Source: Gammaproteobacteria bacterium (GTDB taxonomy: Bacteria > Pseudomonadota > Gammaproteobacteria > Pseudomonadales > Azotimanducaceae). Taken from it: DNA of 64,000 nt. Within the stretch, counting starts at the first letter, position 1. Each line of letters starts with the position of its first letter. The notes below the pieces were generated by a model, which was given only the letters and a program-made list of their open reading frames with translations, was not told the origin of the DNA and made no database searches. The stretch covers positions 1-64,000 of the forward strand of contig JAPPDJ010000057.1 in the NCBI GenBank assembly GCA_028824555.1. Direction: 5' to 3'. Shown piece after piece: positions 9,144 through 55,627 of this stretch. A program made the translations under genes and the position numbers.

Positions 9144-10319
9144 TCAGCTCGCGCCCGGTGCGGCAGCCTCGGCGAGGAGCGCGCCACTCGCAAGCGCCCG
9201 CGCCACGGCCGCGTCATCGAGCTCAAGCCAATCGCGCAACACGTCGGCGTTGTGCTCGCCACGATGCGGAGCGACGCCGCGCACACCGGACTCGGCGGCG
9301 GAGAAACGGTACGGAGACTGGGTGAGGGGACGCGTTCCGCCGGCACGGTCGTCCGCGTCGATGATGGCACCGCGGTGGTTCACGGTGGGGGATTCGCGTG
9401 CGTCCTTGGCGTCGCGCACCAGCCCCCATGCGAGATTCATGCGACGCATTGCGTCGTGAACTGCGTCCATGCTCGTAAGCGAAGCGAAGAACTCGGTCGC
9501 AGCTTCGCGCCGGAGTCGAATCTTGTCGGCCAAGGGCGCGCCCGACGGAGTCGGATCCTCGACTCCCATGCGCCGGTTCAGTTGCCGCCAGATGTGTCGG
9601 AAGTCGCCAGCCGTGAGGACGGAACCAACGCCCGTGCGCCAGATGTCGGACAGCGCCGGCCCCGTGTCGTGGGAATCTTCGAGGTAGTACTGAAGCTGAT
9701 CGTCCGTCGCCAGCATCGCGTCCACCATGGCGATGTCGATGTGCTGGCCGAGCCCTGTGCGTGCCCGCATGAGGAGCGCCGACAGCACTGCCACGAGTCC
9801 GTGCAGAGAGGCGTTCGTGTCCGCCACCGACATCTTGATGTCCGCCGGCTCGCGGCCATCCCGCCCCTGCCGATGCACCAGGCCCGTCTCGGCATGAATG
9901 GCCGCGGCGTAGGCCGCCCGGCCCGACTCCGGGCCGTCCTGGCCAAAGCCAGATATGGAAAGCAGGATGACGTCTTCCTTCAGCTCCTTGAGCGTCTCGT
10001 AGCCGAGCCCAAGCCGCGCCAGCACACCGGGACGGAAGTTCTCGATCACCACATCCGCCACCTTGGCCAGGTCCCGAGCGATGGCGACGCCCTCGTCCCG
10101 ACCAAGATCAATGCACATCCCCCGCTTGCCAGCGTTCTGCTGATGAAAATAGCCGGGCACCCCGCCGATCACCGCCCCCCAAAGCCGCGTCATGTCCCCA
10201 TCTGGCGGCTCTACCTTGACCACGTCCGCGCCGAGATCGCTGAGCATCCGGCCGGCGAACGGCCCCGCCAACACACGCGACAGATCAAGAACGCGGATTC
10301 CTTCGAGCGGACGGGCCAT
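9144..10319 (-). CDS. CaiB/BaiF (class III) CoA transferase
   Basis: This 391-residue enzyme moves CoA between carboxylic acids. The N-terminal signature LEGIRVLDLSRVLAGPFAGR is followed by LGADVVKVEPP and the catalytic region MLSDLGAD...VVIENFRPG. Family members use an Asp nucleophile in the block corresponding to SVADTNASLHGLVAVL, and this Asp is present. The substrate is not predictable. It is the first gene of a three-gene operon with the Hsp70-like and NTF2-like genes. Confidence 0.92.
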   Translation of the reverse strand: MARPLEGIRVLDLSRVLAGPFAGRMLSDLGADVVKVEPPDGDMTRLWGAVIGGVPGYFHQQNAGKRGMCIDLGRDEGVAIARDLAKVADVVIENFRPGVLARLGLGYETLKELKEDVILLSISGFGQDGPESGRAAYAAAIHAETGLVHRQGRDGREPADIKMSVADTNASLHGLVAVLSALLMRARTGLGQHIDIAMVDAMLATDDQLQYYLEDSHDTGPALSDIWRTGVGSVLTAGDFRHIWRQLNRRMGVEDPTPSGAPLADKIRLRREAATEFFASLTSMDAVHDAMRRMNLAWGLVRDAKDARESPTVNHRGAIIDADDRAGGTRPLTQSPYRFSAAESGVRGVAPHRGEHNADVLRDWLELDDAAVARALASGALLAEAAAPGAS

Positions 10320-38889: not shown

Positions 38890-38971
38890 AGCCCCCGCCA
38901 AAGAAAAAGTGACCGAAAATTGTGTGCGCTTCGCGGGATTGCGGCAACCCCGCACAGGCAAGCAGGACTTT

Positions 38972-39069
38972 GGAGGGAAGGCATTCTGCCTTCCCTACGC
39001 GATAGGCGTTTCCAGCCAACGCCGACAGCGCGCCTGACGGCGCGAGGGAAGGCAGAATGCCTTCCCTCC
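38972..39069. repeat. Long inverted repeat of family C
   Basis: Perfect 25-nt arms at 38972-38996 and 39045-39069 are built on GGAAGGCATTCTGCCTTCC. They enclose a GCGCGCCTGACGGCGCG hairpin. It is a second copy of the 25876-25994 element and sits upstream of the diiron gene cluster. Confidence 0.8.
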
Positions 39070-39190
39070 GAAGGCCCGTCCGCCGCCGAGTTCCGACACG
39101 CCCCAAAACGAGATATACGAAGAAATCGCTTGCCTTACCGAGGCGTCAGCGGGTTATAGTTGCCCGCTAGGCAGAAAAGGACCTTACCCA

Positions 39191-40258
39191 ATGAGCGAGG
39201 CGGTGGACACCAGCGGCGAGCACGAGCTCGATCTCAGCTGGATGGATCAGAAAGGCCCTTGGGACACGAAGGCCGAGGAGAGCCGCTACGGCCTCACCTT
39301 GGCCGACATCCAGATCGGCGAGTACGGCGAAACGCCGGACGTGAGCGACAACCTCACCGGTCGCCCGCGTGGCTCTGCACCCCGCCCCGGCAGCTATCGC
39401 ATCGGCAACTACGCCGTGCGCACCAAGAACGAAATCTGGCTCGACAACGCCTCGTTCCTCTACGAGGAAGCGCTGCAGCGGCAGTGGAGCTCTGCCACGG
39501 ACGTCCCCTGGCACACCATCGAGCCGTTGCCCGACGACATCGAGCAGGCCGAATGCCAGCTCGCCACCTTCTTCACCGAGGTGGAGTTTGTCGCTGGCGA
39601 CGTACCCGCCCGCTGGGTGTCCGAGACGACGCCCGACTTCTTCGAAGCTCGCCAGGTGCTACTCGCCCAGGTGATGGACGAATCCCGCCACATGGACGTC
39701 TTCCGCAAGCGTGCCATGGCCAATGGCGGTGGCCTGATGCAGGCCACTGGCGCCACTTCCGGCTTCGTCGGCAGCATCGACCTCTCGCGCGATTTCACCG
39801 AGATGTCCTCCCGCCTGCACCTCTCCGGCGAGGGCGCGGTGCTCACCATGTTCCGCATGGGCGAACTGATGGCACAGAACGAGGCCGAGAAGGCCATGTA
39901 TCGCCTCTGCGCCCAGGACGAAGCTCGACACGTGGCGTTCGGCGTGATGCACATGCGCTACATGTCCGCCGCAGCCCCAGAACGCCGGGAGGAGATCCAC
40001 TGCTATCTCGACGAGGCAGAAGGGCAGATTGTCTCTGGCGTCGGCAATCCGGCCGCCCGCGGCGGTCCAGTGGGGGAATCCCTCGCCATCCTGCTCGGTG
40101 GCGGCAAGGACAAGTTCGACGAGGGCATGAACATGCTCACGGCCATCCGCCGGCGCCAGTTCCGCGAATACAAAAAGCGCATCGTTTCCGCCGGCTTTGG
40201 CGAGCGCTTCGAGAACGGCCGTTCGCGCCTGATGGAGATGTTCGAGGAGGCCGCCTGA
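39191..40258 (+). CDS. Ferritin-like diiron protein, putative catalytic subunit
   Basis: A 355-residue helical protein with the carboxylate-bridged diiron pattern: E130/E132 (FFTEVEF), E164-x-x-H167 (VMDESRHMDVF), E225/E231 (GELMAQNEAE) and E244-x-x-H247 (AQDEARHVAFG). A roughly 90-residue N-terminal extension precedes the bundle. The two ExxH motifs in four helices are those of R2-like oxygenases and N-oxygenases, so O2-dependent oxidation is inferred. The substrate and exact family are unknown. It is the first of four or five genes, with a degenerate paralogue next to it. Confidence 0.85.
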   Translation: MSEAVDTSGEHELDLSWMDQKGPWDTKAEESRYGLTLADIQIGEYGETPDVSDNLTGRPRGSAPRPGSYRIGNYAVRTKNEIWLDNASFLYEEALQRQWSSATDVPWHTIEPLPDDIEQAECQLATFFTEVEFVAGDVPARWVSETTPDFFEARQVLLAQVMDESRHMDVFRKRAMANGGGLMQATGATSGFVGSIDLSRDFTEMSSRLHLSGEGAVLTMFRMGELMAQNEAEKAMYRLCAQDEARHVAFGVMHMRYMSAAAPERREEIHCYLDEAEGQIVSGVGNPAARGGPVGESLAILLGGGKDKFDEGMNMLTAIRRRQFREYKKRIVSAGFGERFENGRSRLMEMFEEAA

Positions 40259-40322
40259 CCGAAGGCGGCCCTCACACCCCCAACTTCCAGCCCTGTCGGC
40301 ACAAGACGGAGCCGTAATCCCT

Positions 40323-41510
40323 ATGGCCAAGAGTTCCAAGGCGAGCAAAGCCAAGACGGCCAAAAAGGCCCCTGCCGCGTCGGCAAAGCCCTCCGCTGCG
40401 AGCGACCCCGCCATCGCTGCGACCCCGACGCTGGTGTCTTCACAAGCCCAAGGCAAGGCGGATTCGGGCCAGCCGGAAAAGCAGGGGCCCGTACTCGACT
40501 GGATGAACAAGACCCGCCAATGGGGTGTGCGCGTCAAGCCCGGCAAGGCGGGCCTTCGCTTGGGCGACCTGAACGTCGGCATCTACGGCGAGATTCCGAT
40601 GCAGTGGAGCGATCAGAGCCGCAACCCCCGTGGCGCCGTGCCGCGCAAGGGCATGCCGCCTGTGGGCTACGCGGTGCGCGAGAAGGTGGGCATGTGGGCC
40701 GATTCCGCCGCCGACCTCTACGAAGAAGCCATCCAGCGCCGCTGGGCGCCGGCCACCGACGTGCCGTGGAACACCGTCGAAAAGCTCCCGAGCGACATCG
40801 AGCGCGCCATCTGCCAGGTCTGCACCGAGCTTTCGCAGTTCGCCAACGTCGAGATCGAGACCATCGCCGGCTGGCAGCACCAGATGGTCTATGGCTACCA
40901 CGAGGTGAAGCAGTATCTCGCCACCGCCAGCTTCGACGCCGCCAGACACTACGAGTGCTTCCGCAAGCGCGCGCTGGTGAACGGCGGCGGTCTCGGCGTC
41001 GAAGGGCCGGGGCAAGTCAACCGCATGATCCTGGAAAGCAGCGGCGGCTGGTCCGCTACCGTCGCCTATCTCGTCCTGGTGCGAGCCGTCTTCACCATGA
41101 CAATCCTCAAATACCTCGCCCGCCACGCCTACAACGATGCCGAACGCTTCATCTACGAGCACGTGCTGCAAGACAAGGCGCGGCTGCTCACCTATGGCCT
41201 AGACCACCTCCACTTCGCCGTCGCCCACGACGACGAACAACCGGCGGTGCTCGCCACGGTGCTCGCCATCGGCGACCGCGTGCTCACCCGTGACCTGCGC
41301 GACCCGGCATTGCGCGAGGCCCTCGCCATCATCTTCGGCCGCGGCATTCGCGGCGCCCGGAGGCAAGGCATGGAGATGTATGAAGAAATGATGGCGGACT
41401 TCATGCAGACGCATCTCGGCTACTGCCGTTGGCTCGGCATCGCCCGCGCCCCGGCGGAAGCGATGCCGCCCCCGCTCAACCGTCACGCCGGCGCGAGCGT
41501 CGCCGCCTGA
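40323..41510 (+). CDS. Ferritin-like paralogue with destroyed diiron site
   Basis: A 395-residue homologue of the upstream protein. Shared blocks include DLYEEAIQRRWAPATDVPWN (versus LYEEALQRQWSSATDVPWH) and CFRKRALVNGGGL (versus VFRKRAMANGGGL). The first ExxH has become A206-A-R-H209 (FDAARHYECF) and the second K285-A-R-L288 (QDKARLLTYG), so it cannot bind two irons. A Lys/Ala-rich 50-residue N-terminus (KASKAKTAKKAPAASAKPS) is extra. It is likely a structural partner of the catalytic subunit, like PaaC to PaaA or the beta subunits of bacterial multicomponent monooxygenases. Confidence 0.82.
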   Translation: MAKSSKASKAKTAKKAPAASAKPSAASDPAIAATPTLVSSQAQGKADSGQPEKQGPVLDWMNKTRQWGVRVKPGKAGLRLGDLNVGIYGEIPMQWSDQSRNPRGAVPRKGMPPVGYAVREKVGMWADSAADLYEEAIQRRWAPATDVPWNTVEKLPSDIERAICQVCTELSQFANVEIETIAGWQHQMVYGYHEVKQYLATASFDAARHYECFRKRALVNGGGLGVEGPGQVNRMILESSGGWSATVAYLVLVRAVFTMTILKYLARHAYNDAERFIYEHVLQDKARLLTYGLDHLHFAVAHDDEQPAVLATVLAIGDRVLTRDLRDPALREALAIIFGRGIRGARRQGMEMYEEMMADFMQTHLGYCRWLGIARAPAEAMPPPLNRHAGASVAA

Positions 41511-41561
41511 CGCCTAGGCCAGTCGCTCGCACCGATCAACAGACGTAAGGCACCGTCCGCA

Positions 41562-41993
41562 ATGGCGAAATTCCCCTCCGTGCGCTGGTTCGACGCCGTC
41601 CGCGAAGTGTTCAACGGCGACGAGTCCGTGCAGGGCGGCGGTGGCGGCTACTGCAACTGCATCGCCGGCATGAAGGTGGGCAAGGACGTGTTCGTTCTCA
41701 CGTTCGAGGGCGTCGAGTGCACTGAAGCGGTCAAGGCTGACGACGCGGCGCTAGACGACGTGGACTTCTACCTCGACATGGCCCCCGCCGACTGGCGCGA
41801 GATGATCTCCAACATCCACAGCAACAACGGCGCCGACCGGCACCACACCCTCAACACGCTCGACCTCGAACGCGAAGACGGCCTCGCCACCTCCCACCAC
41901 GGCGACCAATACCGCGAAGACCTATTCTTCCGCTACAACCAGACCTTCCAGTATTTCTTCAACGCCTCGGCCCGCATCCGAACCGACTTCTGA
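41562..41993 (+). CDS. Small SCP2-like (putative lipid-binding) protein
   Basis: A 143-residue alpha/beta protein. The sequence VFVLTFEGVECTEAVKADDA then VDFYLDMAPADWREMISNIH resembles the SCP2 (sterol carrier) fold, where a beta strand is followed by a W-x-x-(M/L)I helix. The end (FRYNQTFQYFFNASARI) is aromatic-rich. A Gly-rich stretch (VQGGGGGYCNC) lies near the start. The gene follows the degenerate diiron paralogue after 51 bp. It may present a hydrophobic substrate to the diiron enzyme. The fold call is tentative. Confidence 0.6.
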   Translation: MAKFPSVRWFDAVREVFNGDESVQGGGGGYCNCIAGMKVGKDVFVLTFEGVECTEAVKADDAALDDVDFYLDMAPADWREMISNIHSNNGADRHHTLNTLDLEREDGLATSHHGDQYREDLFFRYNQTFQYFFNASARIRTDF

Positions 41994-42053
41994 CGGACCG
42001 GCCAGACCCTTTTTCCACTTCCCGACCACCCGAAGCGGAGGCGACGAACGAAC

Positions 42054-42461
42054 ATGGCGCACCTCGACTGGCTGGACCGAGCCGCAAAGGCCGTCAACTC
42101 CGACCCGGCCTTTCGCAAGCTCGGCTCCACCGACATGCGAATCGCCTTCAAGGCCGGCACCGTGGCCCGCGGCGTCACTTTCGAGGCCTTCGAGGTGACG
42201 AAGGTGCAGGACGTGGACGAAAACGACCTGCGCGACTGGGAACTCGTCATCGACATGCCCGCCCGCAACTGGACCAACTACCTGCGCCAACGCGCCGACG
42301 GCCGCGGCCCGTCCTTGGTCAGCCTCGATATCGACCGCAACATCGTCCAGGCGCCAGACCCCCTCGCCCGCCTCAAGTTCGAACGCTTCCACCTTTCCCT
42401 GCAGGCCCTTGTCGACAAGGGCGCGAGGTGGGCCGCGCGACCAAGGGCAGCAAGCCGCTAG
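42054..42461 (+). CDS. Second small SCP2-like protein
   Basis: A 135-residue protein with a similar layout to its upstream neighbour: MRIAFKAGTVARGVTFEAFE, then DWELVIDMPARNWTNYLRQR and a hydrophobic C-terminal helix (RFHLSLQALVDKGARW). The DWELVIDMPARNW block is the SCP2-like strand-helix unit. It lies in the same operon, 60 bp downstream. Two small, related proteins next to two related large ones suggest a four-component complex. Function is inferred from context. Confidence 0.6.
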   Translation: MAHLDWLDRAAKAVNSDPAFRKLGSTDMRIAFKAGTVARGVTFEAFEVTKVQDVDENDLRDWELVIDMPARNWTNYLRQRADGRGPSLVSLDIDRNIVQAPDPLARLKFERFHLSLQALVDKGARWAARPRAASR

Positions 42462-42510
42462 GGCATTCTCGGCTGGTGCCGGCAAGCCACGTTCCAACAA
42501 GGCCGCCGAG

Positions 42511-42795
42511 GTGCCAATCTACGAATACCGCTGCGAATCCTGCAACGCAGTGAGCACGGCGCTCGCCTCCATCTCCGCCATCCCAACCGAAGTCCCCTGC
42601 GAGACCTGCGGCAAACCCTCCCCGCGCATCCTCTCCCGCCCCTCCGTCCACCTCTCCGCCCGCTCCAAAACCGCCCGCCTGGACCCCAAGTACGACAAGC
42701 GCGTGGATCAAGCCATGCGCAACACCCCCATGGCCGACCCGGACCGGCTGATCAACCGGCGGGGAGACAGCACGAAGGGCCGACCTGACGGCTAA
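42511..42795 (+). CDS. FmdB-type zinc-ribbon protein
   Basis: A 94-residue protein with the FmdB/CxxC zinc ribbon VPIYEYRCESCNAVSTALAS then PCETCGKPSPRIL, starting at GTG. The C-terminal tail (RLDPKYDKRVDQAMRNTPM) is typical of the family. FmdB-like ribbons are often encoded next to amide hydrolases and oxygenases, with no proven role. It lies 50 bp after the second SCP2-like gene and probably belongs to the same operon. Confidence 0.85.
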   Translation: MPIYEYRCESCNAVSTALASISAIPTEVPCETCGKPSPRILSRPSVHLSARSKTARLDPKYDKRVDQAMRNTPMADPDRLINRRGDSTKGRPDG

Positions 42796-42902
42796 AGGCG
42801 TCCTCGGGCTTTCGCAATTGCACGGCCCTCGAAGGGAAGGCGGATGCCCCTTCTCCGAAGGGCCAGCACCGCGCCAGTTACCGCTATCCGCGAAGCTCGT
42901 CC

Positions 42903-44603
42903 TTAGTCGAAGCGAAGGCTTTCGACGATGCGTGCCGCAGAGGCTACTCCGGCAGAATTTTCGAGGGGATGCGCGGCTACGGTCGCGACTTGGCCACGGC
43001 GAACCGCGAACACGGCCTGGGTGGCAAGGCGGACGCCGGCGGGCAGGTAGAGCCAGCGGATCTCCGCTCGGAACGCCGGCGTGCCGTCAGCTAGCGTCAT
43101 GGCCTGATTCTTGGTCACCTCGAAGTCCGCGCCGATACCAGTGGCCTCTGCGCCGCTTGCCCAAGCCGCCGCCGTGTCCTCAAGCGGTACTTCGGATTCC
43201 GGCGTGACGCTGACGCGGAAGGTGAAGCCGTCGGGTGTCGAGGCGGAGAACACCTGATCTTCAGCGTCCGGCGCCACCGGCCGCGACCCCTCGGGGAAGG
43301 CGATTCTGAAGCCGGGATCGCCATCGTGGTTGTACTCAGCGAGCGCTTGCACGCGAGGTGCCACGTCCGCCTGCAGCGCAATGCGCGGATGCTCGTTTGG
43401 GGCAGTGAGAGCGTTCAGCACCTCAAACTCAAGCCGCACCTTATCCGCCGCCTGCGCCGGCCTCAAGATTAGTTGCGTGCGACTATGCGGGTCGATGTCC
43501 ACGAGGTTCGCCTGCCCGGTGAAAGACTGACTGGCGGTGGTCAAGTGCCGCAGCCGCATGGGCGACTCCGTGTGGTTGACCAGGGTCACCGAGACGACAT
43601 CGCGGCTCGGGTGCCAGTGAACGTCATCCAGCGTCAGCCCCGCCTGAAGCAGGGCTTGGAGTTGCGGCGGTTCGCCGATGAGCAGGTCCTTGAACCACAC
43701 CACCGTGCGGCCCTCGAACAGGGCGCTCCTCAACGCCTCGGGCGAGCGCTCGTCGGCCAACACCAGCGTTACCGGCCGGTGGCCGCCACCCGCGACGTTG
43801 TAGTCCCAGTCCACCAGATTGTGAACGTCGGAGGTGCCGATCAGGACGAGCCCATATTCCAAGGCGATCCGGTGCGACTCCTCGCTGTAGGTGCCGCCGT
43901 TGACGACCTCGATGCCATGCAACTGGTCGCTCGCGATGAGTTCTCGTTGGATGGCAGTGAGCTTGGTTCTGAGGTCCGGTGTGGCGGGAGAACTCCATGA
44001 GTGATTCCAGAACACGAAGGCACCCTGTCGGTTTGCCGCCGCCACGGCCTCTTCCACCGGGAAGGAGGCTACCTCGTCGCGGTTCGCCATGGGGAGGAGT
44101 TCGTTGGTATCGTCGACGAAGACCGCATTCATGTGCCCGGCCGGCGCACTGCGGGTGATCTCCGAGCCATTGATGACGATGAGATCCGTCGCGGCGGCCG
44201 CAAGCTGTGCCTCGTGGAAGGCGCTGTTGCGATCGGGATGCGGCAGGTGCATCCGGTGTGGTTGGTACTCGAGATGTTCGGTGACGGCGAGGGCATCGAG
44301 CCCGTCCCGCACCGCCTCGGCGACGCGGATGTAGGGCCAGACGTGGCCATCGGAAAAGACGCTGTGGGTGTGCAGATCGACCACCAAGGTGACGTGATCT
44401 GCGGTGTCCGGAAACTCAATTGCGCGGCCATCCTCGCGGATGTCGCCAGACACGCCGCCATGACCCCACGACGAAGCCGCAATCGCGACGAGGCCGGCAG
44501 CGAGAACGGGCCGCAGCGGGCCCGGCGGCACGCGGCGAAGGTACGCAAAAGGCAATGACCGACCGTACGCATTGTGAGCGGCGGGCAGATTGACGAGTTG
44601 CAT
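42903..44603 (-). CDS. Secreted PHP-domain phosphoesterase-like protein
   Basis: A 566-residue protein with a signal-like segment (RPVLAAGLVAIAASSWG), then a PHP domain. Metal ligands are visible in LVVDLHTHSVFSDGHVW, ALAVTEHLEY and IGTSDVHNL. Downstream is a region unlike DNA-polymerase or histidinol-phosphatase PHP proteins: an immunoglobulin-like stretch (VVSVTLVNHTESPMRLRHLT) and a C-terminal beta domain. Predicted extracytoplasmic phosphoesterase of unknown substrate. Two ATGs (44636, 44603) are possible, and neither has a good Shine-Dalgarno. Confidence 0.82.
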   Translation of the reverse strand: MQLVNLPAAHNAYGRSLPFAYLRRVPPGPLRPVLAAGLVAIAASSWGHGGVSGDIREDGRAIEFPDTADHVTLVVDLHTHSVFSDGHVWPYIRVAEAVRDGLDALAVTEHLEYQPHRMHLPHPDRNSAFHEAQLAAAATDLIVINGSEITRSAPAGHMNAVFVDDTNELLPMANRDEVASFPVEEAVAAANRQGAFVFWNHSWSSPATPDLRTKLTAIQRELIASDQLHGIEVVNGGTYSEESHRIALEYGLVLIGTSDVHNLVDWDYNVAGGGHRPVTLVLADERSPEALRSALFEGRTVVWFKDLLIGEPPQLQALLQAGLTLDDVHWHPSRDVVSVTLVNHTESPMRLRHLTTASQSFTGQANLVDIDPHSRTQLILRPAQAADKVRLEFEVLNALTAPNEHPRIALQADVAPRVQALAEYNHDGDPGFRIAFPEGSRPVAPDAEDQVFSASTPDGFTFRVSVTPESEVPLEDTAAAWASGAEATGIGADFEVTKNQAMTLADGTPAFRAEIRWLYLPAGVRLATQAVFAVRRGQVATVAAHPLENSAGVASAARIVESLRFD

Positions 44604-44636
44604 GGTCGTCACCGGCGGCGAAAGGGTGGGGACCAT

Positions 44637-54415: not shown

Positions 54416-55627
54416 CTAGTCGTCGTGGTGTTGGCGGGCGATTCCGCGCTCGATCATTTGCTCTCTTTCCTCTGCCGAGAAGCCGATTTCGGCGAGGATT
54501 TCCTGGGTGTGTTGGCCGATGTTGGGGGCTAGGCGCGGCCGACGCTTCTCGGTGTCGGCGACCCATATGGGACTGTTCACCGTGTAGGCATAGAAGTGAC
54601 TGCCTGGTTCGACTTCCGTGAGGATGTCGTTGGCGTGCACCTGTTCGTCGGCGATCACTTCCGACATGCGTTGGGCCAGGGAGTAGGTGATGCCGGCTCG
54701 GTCGAGCTTCTCGCACCATACGTCGGAGTCGTTGCCCAAGAAGGCGGTGGCGATCAGGGCGTGGAGTTCCTCGCGGTGTTCGAAGCGGGCCACCTGGTCC
54801 AGGAACCGAGCGTCTTGCGCCCACTCAGGATGGCCGAGCGCCGCCGCGAACTTCGGCCATTCCTTGGCATGGTTGAGGATGCTGAGGAGGATCGTGCGAC
54901 CGTCGCGAGTCTCGTACACAGTGGCGAGGGGAGTGGCTCGGGTTTCGCCGGTGTCGCGCCTGTCGGAATAGTCGAAGCCGACGATCGCCCCCTGCATCAT
55001 CATGCTGTGCGCCCATGCTCCGTTGGCCAACAGAGACGTATGCACGTGCGCTCCCTCGCCGGTGCGTTCGCGCCGGTAGAGCGCCGCCATGATGCCGCCG
55101 AACAGCGCCATGCTGGTGGGGTGGTCGCCCATGCCGGGTGCAGAGATGGCGTGCGGCGAAAGCGGGCGCCGCACATGATCCATCAGGCCACTGCGCGCCC
55201 ACCACGCCGTGGCGTCGAAGCCGGTGCGGTTGGCATCGGGGCCCTTTAGCCCATACGAGTTCACCTGCCCGTAGATGACCTTCTCGTTCAGTTCACGCAC
55301 GTCGGCATAGGTGAACTTCAACCGCTCCAAGAGCTCCGGCCGGTAGTTGGTGATGACCACATCGGCGCGGCGGATGAGGCGCTCGATGGCATCGCGCCCT
55401 GCGGGCGTCGTGAAGTCGATGGCAAGGCTGCGCTTGTTACGGCCGTCCTGATCCCAGAAGAAATTGGGGTACTCCGCCAGCACGCCGCCAAGCAAGGTTC
55501 TGTAGGGATCGCCCGTCAGCGGCTCAACTTTCACCACGTCGGCACCGAAGTCGGAGAGCACGGTGGCAGTCGCAGGGCCAGCGACGTAGGAGCCCAGATC
55601 CAGCACGCGCAGATGATTCAGGAACAT
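54416..55627 (-). CDS. CaiB/BaiF (class III) CoA transferase
   Basis: A 403-residue enzyme with LRVLDLGSYVAGPATATVLS, FGADVVKVEPLTGDPYR, VVITNYRPELLERL and ALYRRERTGEGAHVHTSLL. The Asp that forms the acyl-enzyme lies in the central conserved helix. It belongs to the same family as the gene at 9144 but is not a recent duplicate. Its substrate is unknown. It lies alone, with about 190 bp before the nor genes. Confidence 0.92.
   Translation of the reverse strand: MFLNHLRVLDLGSYVAGPATATVLSDFGADVVKVEPLTGDPYRTLLGGVLAEYPNFFWDQDGRNKRSLAIDFTTPAGRDAIERLIRRADVVITNYRPELLERLKFTYADVRELNEKVIYGQVNSYGLKGPDANRTGFDATAWWARSGLMDHVRRPLSPHAISAPGMGDHPTSMALFGGIMAALYRRERTGEGAHVHTSLLANGAWAHSMMMQGAIVGFDYSDRRDTGETRATPLATVYETRDGRTILLSILNHAKEWPKFAAALGHPEWAQDARFLDQVARFEHREELHALIATAFLGNDSDVWCEKLDRAGITYSLAQRMSEVIADEQVHANDILTEVEPGSHFYAYTVNSPIWVADTEKRRPRLAPNIGQHTQEILAEIGFSAEEREQMIERGIARQHHDD

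What the first reader, a model, noticed from the sequence alone, without database searches (positions are those of the whole stretch)
39191..42795. Putative new multi-component diiron oxygenase: active and inactive ferritin-like paralogues plus two SCP2-like proteins
The first protein keeps both ExxH pairs of a diiron site (E164/H167, E244/H247). The second, clearly homologous, has A206 and K285/L288 at these places and cannot hold the metal pair. Two small related proteins with SCP2-like strands follow, then a zinc ribbon, all on one strand with 50-70-bp gaps. The catalytic/structural paralogue logic is that of PaaA/PaaC or bacterial multicomponent monooxygenases, but SCP2-like partners would hint at a bulky lipid or sterol substrate. 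No reductase or ferredoxin is nearby. I do not know a named system of this composition.
Basis: partly seen in the sequence, partly recalled or inferred. Interest (0 to 1): 0.82.

Follow-up and report, generated by a model that had tools for sequence, protein, structure and literature searches.

The report
Paired iron oxygenase with lipid-carrier-like partners
A conserved block of five bacterial genes seems to encode an unstudied iron-containing oxygenase made of a working copy, a metal-free twin and two small proteins, at least one shaped like a lipid carrier, which may let uncultured marine bacteria oxidise a greasy substrate.

Summary
At 39191-42792 lie five genes on one strand: A, ferritin-like, with all six ligands of a diiron site; B, its paralogue (34% identity), without them; C and D, two related small proteins; E, an FmdB zinc ribbon. 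All five occur in order in 31 of 51 related loci while flanks vary; 13 of the other 20 are cut by contig ends, 4 truly lack C or E. The six ligands are kept in 49 of 49 A-type proteins; the four carboxylates are lost in 49 of 49 B-type ones, yet B is under purifying selection. No Pfam or NCBIfam model takes A-D over its cut-off. C is modelled with confidence (pLDDT 92.5); its best fold matches are SCP2 domains, but weak (E 0.1). A is a remote relative of AurF/R2lox/VlmB proteins; no match to PaaA. A-type genes occur in 61 of 206 genomes of one Pseudomonadales family. Rare relatives have one active ferritin plus one C-like protein, so A/B and C/D look like duplicates of a two-gene unit. Most likely a heteromeric diiron oxygenase for a hydrophobic or acyl substrate. 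Metal, oxygen chemistry, complex and substrate are inferred, not shown.

The parts
39191..40255 (+). Gene A: ferritin-like protein with six putative diiron ligands E132, E164, H167, E214, E244, H247 (stop codon at 40256-40258)
   Evidence: ligands invariant in 49 of 49 A-type rows; sub-cut-off R2lox match; weak VlmB/ADO fold matches of a low-confidence model
40323..41507 (+). Gene B: paralogue of A without the metal ligands, long low-complexity N-terminus
   Evidence: four carboxylate ligands lost in 49 of 49 B-type rows; dN/dS 0.03-0.11 in 11 pairs
41562..41990 (+). Gene C: small protein, SCP2-type fold likely
   Evidence: Model pLDDT 92.5; Foldseek ranks 1-6 SCP2 domains, E 0.10-0.21
42054..42458 (+). 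Gene D: paralogue of C
   Evidence: not modelled
42511..42792 (+). Gene E: FmdB-family zinc ribbon, GTG start
   Evidence: PF09723 41.3 bits (cut-off 34.4), TIGR02605 42.7 bits (cut-off 31.3); four Cys kept in 40 of 40 rows

Best explanation
A heteromeric, O2-using diiron enzyme. A binds two metal ions and does the chemistry. B is a retained metal-free copy of A that forms a mixed complex with it, in the way PaaC partners PaaA, but evolved separately. C and D, of SCP2-type fold, hold or hand over a hydrophobic substrate (a lipid or acyl-CoA-like molecule). E is a small zinc- or iron-binding accessory, possibly the electron-transfer part. Shown: gene anatomy, ligand pattern, co-inheritance, duplication history in outline, selection on B. 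Likely: fold of C. Inferred: metal binding, oxygen chemistry, complex formation, substrate class, role of E.
For: Six ligands with spacing 32-3-47-30-3, invariant in 49 of 49 A-type rows and kept in the five single-unit relatives, close to PaaA's 30-3-51-29-3 (residues in a passage of PMC4498308). Relatives of A, though remote, are enzymes or putative enzymes of the R2lox/AurF/VlmB kind. B lost the carboxylates in 49 of 49 yet is constrained. Cassette order kept in 31 of 51 loci, flanks not. SCP2 domains are the top six fold matches of C. The ferritin is next to a C-like gene in the single-unit relatives too.
Against: The model of A is poor (pLDDT 49.5) and its matches have E 0.02 or worse with rmsd near 15 A. 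The SCP2 match of C has E 0.1 or worse, with unrelated folds at similar E from rank 7 on, and no sequence match to UbiJ or Pfam SCP2 was found. C is absent in L029 and L043, and E in L042, L046 and the three G630 loci, so neither is needed everywhere. No reductase is known. No substrate evidence.
Confidence: 0.5

Rival explanations
1. A VlmB/AurF-like oxygenase (N-oxygenation or the like) on a small, soluble metabolite; C and D are scaffolds and carry no lipid.
For: VlmB homologue is the best solved-structure match of A by profile (E=0.019) and by fold; AurF-like proteins are the nearest family-level relatives.
Against: All these matches are weak; AurF's extra metal-binding His four residues before the second ExxH Glu (recalled) is Cys240 here, invariant. 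No biosynthetic gene cluster seen around the cassette.
Confidence: 0.2
2. A quinone-ring or isoprenoid hydroxylase: C/D hold the tail as UbiJ is proposed to, A hydroxylates the head. The single-unit form might stand in for COQ7.
For: Top fold matches of C are UbiJ SCP2 domains. All four family genomes with the plain single unit lack COQ7, against 9 lacking of 120. No SCP2 family protein over the Pfam cut-off was found in G000 (best E 0.08).
Against: 34 of 36 genomes with an A-type gene have COQ7, so the five-gene form is no substitute. G411 (single unit) and G619 (pair type) have COQ7. The four genomes are 87-92% complete, lie in three genera, and the test was made after seeing the data. No ubi gene was seen beside the cassette.
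Confidence: 0.12
3. Not an oxygenase: a ferritin-like metal or peroxide-handling complex, with E regulatory.
For: Ferritin-like folds serve such roles too (general knowledge).
Against: The ligand pattern and the nearest families point to R2lox/AurF/VlmB-type proteins; a SCP2-like partner makes little sense for it.
Confidence: 0.08

Closest known systems
Phenylacetyl-CoA epoxidase PaaABCE
   Same: Catalytic ferritin-like subunit plus a related structural one and a small bridging protein; similar ligand spacing (passages of PMC4498308)
   Different: No profile match of A, B or C to E. coli PaaA, PaaC, PaaB; no PaaE-type reductase; SCP2-like small proteins instead; B arose within A's own family
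AurF-like (PF11583), VlmB and R2lox-type ferritin-like proteins
   Same: ExxH pairs, N-terminal LYExxxxxQWxxxxDxxW-like motif shared with AurF-like relatives (read by eye); hhalign 93% to one AurF-like protein, L068
   Different: Far below family cut-offs; these lack the B, C, D, E partners as far as seen; invariant Cys240 where AurF has a His (recalled)
UbiJ and SCP2 lipid-binding domains
   Same: Fold of C; UbiJ's SCP2 domain was proposed to bind the tail of quinone intermediates in an enzyme complex (passages of PMC9499169)
   Different: No sequence match; 6-10% identity in the six top fold alignments; C is 143 aa, E. coli UbiJ 201 aa
FmdB-family zinc ribbons
   Same: E is a member by two curated models
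   Different: Fixed place as last gene of this cassette; role unknown

Membership tests
PaaA/PaaC (phenylacetyl-CoA epoxidase) | Sequence homology of the ferritin-like subunits to PaaA/PaaC | tested here: not met
   No PaaA_PaaC Pfam match at E<=1; hhalign 1.2% and 0.1%. The Paa side was a single sequence each, which limits sensitivity
PaaA/PaaC (phenylacetyl-CoA epoxidase) | Active ferritin-like subunit paired with a metal-free one | tested here: met
   Ligand counts
PaaA/PaaC (phenylacetyl-CoA epoxidase) | PaaE-type reductase in the operon | tested here: not met
   None seen beside the cassette nor among the recurrent neighbours that were annotated
AurF (PF11583) | Match over the Pfam gathering score | tested here: not met
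   No AurF match for A at E<=1; single-unit relatives 10.8-17.2 bits against 29.6
R2-like ligand-binding oxidase | Match over the NCBIfam cut-off | tested here: not met
   22.4 bits against 194
COQ7 | Match to PF03232 | tested here: not met
   No match for A or B at E<=1; COQ7 itself is elsewhere in G000, C27
SCP2 / UbiJ | SCP2 fold | tested here: inconclusive
   C: ranks 1-6 of Foldseek, probability 0.77-0.90 but E 0.10-0.21; D not modelled
SCP2 / UbiJ | Sequence match to PF02036 or UbiJ | tested here: not met
   Only a C-like gene of a single-unit relative (G669) shows up, at E=0.44
FmdB zinc ribbon | Match over curated cut-off and four Cys | tested here: met
   (E)
Diiron oxygenase in general | Two bound metal ions and O2-dependent turnover | not testable with these tools
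   Needs purified protein

The most novel reading that the evidence does not exclude
A separately evolved class of multicomponent diiron oxygenase in which an SCP2-fold protein presents a lipid to the diiron subunit. A two-gene ancestor (active ferritin plus SCP2-like protein), still present in a few genomes and there perhaps standing in for COQ7, was duplicated; one ferritin copy lost its metals and became the structural partner. The second ferritin of L088 has also lost its ligands, so the active/inactive pair may have arisen twice in this one family.
Probability: 0.18. Interest if true: 0.82.

Novelty: new variant of a known kind. Interest (0 to 1): 0.6.

Why it matters
If true, it is a parallel invention of the catalytic/structural pair known from Paa and bacterial multicomponent monooxygenases, with single-unit relatives still alive, so the step from a one-ferritin to a two-ferritin enzyme can be studied directly. 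A diiron protein working with an SCP2-type carrier would be a way for a soluble oxygenase to reach a membrane lipid. No Pfam or NCBIfam model takes A-D over its cut-off, so these genes are probably annotated as hypothetical or only as ferritin-like in public genomes (inference).

Tried and rejected
COQ7 replacement by the five-gene cassette: rejected, 34 of 36 genomes with an A-type gene also have COQ7. A COQ7 link of the single-unit form stays open: the 4 of 4 family genomes with the plain form lack COQ7, but G411 (plain form, another order) and G619 (pair type) have it. UbiH-type hydroxylases over the cut-off in the four: one each in G667, G669 and G698, none in G685, so no extra one was seen to make up for it.

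Substrate from neighbours: a sodium/solute symporter, a family III CoA-transferase and a DUF3604/CehA-type hydrolase recur beside the cassette, within 5 kb in 11, 14 and 11 of 28 loci, which inherited synteny may explain; CoA-transferases number 25-50 in each of four genomes. The symporter follows E by 4-104 nt in 7 loci (L008, L012, L014, L018, L048, L049, L050) and could be co-transcribed there; the window lacks it at that place. The hydrolase downstream of E in the window is not homologous to the recurrent one.

E. coli UbiJ and Paa subunits as sequence relatives: no match. Plasmids: 4 records, 30-54% of the query covered. PHROGs: one weak match of B to a family of unknown function (E=0.005), none for A, C, D. 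Rfam in 38900-43000: none. Promoter and terminator scan: no more than in shuffles. B as a decaying pseudogene: rejected by dN/dS. Literature on the combination: searches gave 0 papers, three unrelated ones; the library holds open-licence PMC papers only.

Structure of A: modelled, too weak to show a metal site.
Full report
WHAT IS THERE. Five open frames on the + strand, A 39191-40255, B 40323-41507, C 41562-41990, D 42054-42458, E 42511-42792 (stop codons not counted), with gaps of 64, 51, 60 and 49 nt. A and B are 34% identical over 316 columns (profiles 100%, E=1e-58). C and D are related. E starts at the GTG of 42511, as its homologues show, and is an FmdB zinc ribbon. No Pfam or NCBIfam model takes A-D over its cut-off. 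Solved structures searched by profile: for A, best is a VlmB homologue (E=0.019); for C and D nothing below E=0.2; for B nothing at E<=10.

CONSERVATION. A scan of one genome per species gave 51 loci, titled as Gammaproteobacteria, Proteobacteria or Pseudomonadales MAGs except one titled Klebsiella (see noticed). The closest, L003, is 99% identical in A. All five genes in order were counted in 31 of 51. Of the other 20, 13 are cut by contig ends (L003, L004, L011, L013, L017, L024, L026, L034, L047, L048, L050, L052, L053), in 2 my filter dropped a gene that is present (L023, L040), L018 has D split over two frames, L029 and L043 lack C, and L042 and L046 lack E. Flanks vary: among 28 loci with at least 3 kb on both sides, the commonest flanking family lies within 5 kb in 14. 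In the window the likely neighbouring genes on both sides lie on the other strand; the upstream one looks like PurM by eye, which I did not test.

RANGE. A-type genes, some cut by contig ends, were found in 61 of the 206 genomes of the window's family (65 with a match at E<=1e-30, less G619, G667, G685, G698, which have other types). In 390 genomes of the order, 8 have a match and all 8 are of that family. The C profile in 321 genomes of the class matched only the window's genome and G411. P0001 in 299 genomes of the phylum matched its own genome strongly and nine others weakly, best E 7e-30 in G196. Other phyla were not sampled by genome, only by the scan, which uses near-exact peptide patterns.

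ACTIVE AND INACTIVE TWIN. In 49 A-type rows (window included; L042 and L091 appear to be the same contig; copies cut short were left out by length) E132, E164, H167, E214, E244 and H247 are invariant. In 49 B-type rows the four carboxylates are gone in all (E132 is Ala in 49), while the two His remain in 29 and 27. The spacing 32-3-47-30-3 resembles PaaA's 30-3-51-29-3 (residues in a passage of PMC4498308). B is not decaying: dN/dS 0.03-0.11 in 11 pairs, against 0.01-0.05 for A; C, D and E run mostly below 0.25, with one D pair at 0.47 on few changes and some values not computable.

HISTORY. L074, L085, L086, L087 and L089 hold one ferritin with all six ligands, one C-like gene and no E. L088 holds an active ferritin, a second that has lost all six, and one C-like gene. 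L094 holds a B-like and a D-like gene only, placed inside the B and D clades with long branches, which looks like a remnant. In the ferritin tree A and B together form one supported clade (99/95) among the single-unit proteins; the base is unresolved. In the C/D tree one branch (100/99) parts D from C plus the single-unit C-like proteins; the root is at the midpoint, so the timing of the C/D split is not settled and the two trees need not agree. The simplest reading is duplication of a two-gene unit, then loss of the metal site in B. L088's inactive copy has an unresolved place, so a second loss is possible but not shown.

FOLD. C: pLDDT 92.5. Foldseek against the PDB has SCP2 domains (UbiJ, AF1534) at ranks 1-6, probability 0.77-0.90, TM (query) 0.39-0.50, E 0.10-0.21; from rank 7 unrelated folds follow at similar E but lower probability. 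Profile comparison with E. coli UbiJ gives nothing. I take the SCP2 fold of C as likely, not proved; D is assumed to share it. A: pLDDT 49.5, helical, with the ligands on helices 115-132, 153-186, 198-226 and 231-261; best matches VlmB and aldehyde deformylating oxygenases, probability near 1 but E 0.02 or worse and rmsd near 15 A.

WHAT IT WORKS LIKE, AND MEMBERSHIP. The anatomy is that of a heteromeric diiron oxygenase with a structural twin, as in PaaA/PaaC, where PaaA is catalytic and PaaC is thought to be structural (passages). It is not shown to be a Paa member: no match of A, B or C to E. coli PaaA, PaaC or PaaB. A is nearer to AurF-like proteins but below their cut-offs. An SCP2-like partner suggests a hydrophobic substrate; UbiJ's SCP2 domain was proposed to bind quinone tails (passages of PMC9499169). 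The electron source is unknown; E could be it, but nothing here tests that, and E is missing in L042, L046 and the G630 loci.

COQ7 LEAD. COQ7 is in 111 of 120 genomes of the family. Of 36 with an A-type gene, 34 have it, so the cassette is no substitute. The four with the plain single unit (G667, G669, G685, G698) lack it. But G411 and G619 have it, the four are 87-92% complete and lie in three genera, and the test was made after seeing the data. G669 also carries the five-gene form. It is a lead only.

VERDICT. A real, conserved, uncharacterised five-gene system; a new variant of the multicomponent diiron kind by gene logic; function inferred. Papers: passages of two were seen, otherwise search listings only; five searches for the combination found nothing on it.

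Noticed in passing
window 38975-38995 and 39046-39066; also 5003, 16855, 25885, 25965, 59627: REP-like palindrome GGGAAGGCANNNTGCCTTCCC, 7 copies with up to 2 mismatches in the window against 0.00 expected, twice as close pairs, one pair just upstream of A.
   Followed up: partly
L042 (record CAMAVY010000008.1) and L091: The record titled Klebsiella pneumoniae appears to be the same 46084-base contig as G630:C8, a genome of the window's family, so the title is probably wrong.
   Followed up: no
L091, L092, L093 (genome G630): Three A-type loci in one genome: two with A-B-C-D and no E, one (L092) with A alone.
   Followed up: partly
L094 (G700): B-like and D-like genes on long branches without A, C or E, as if a cassette were in decay.
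   Followed up: partly
L088 (G619): Active plus inactive ferritin with a single C-like gene; the inactive copy may have lost its site separately.
   Followed up: partly
G000, G640, G642, G681: 25-50 family III CoA-transferase matches in each genome, two of them in the window at 9249-10307 and 54506-55621, both on the - strand.
   Followed up: no
window 42906-44636 (-): PHP-type metallohydrolase next to E, best named match CehA/McbA (67.3 bits, below the cut-off of 80).
   Followed up: partly
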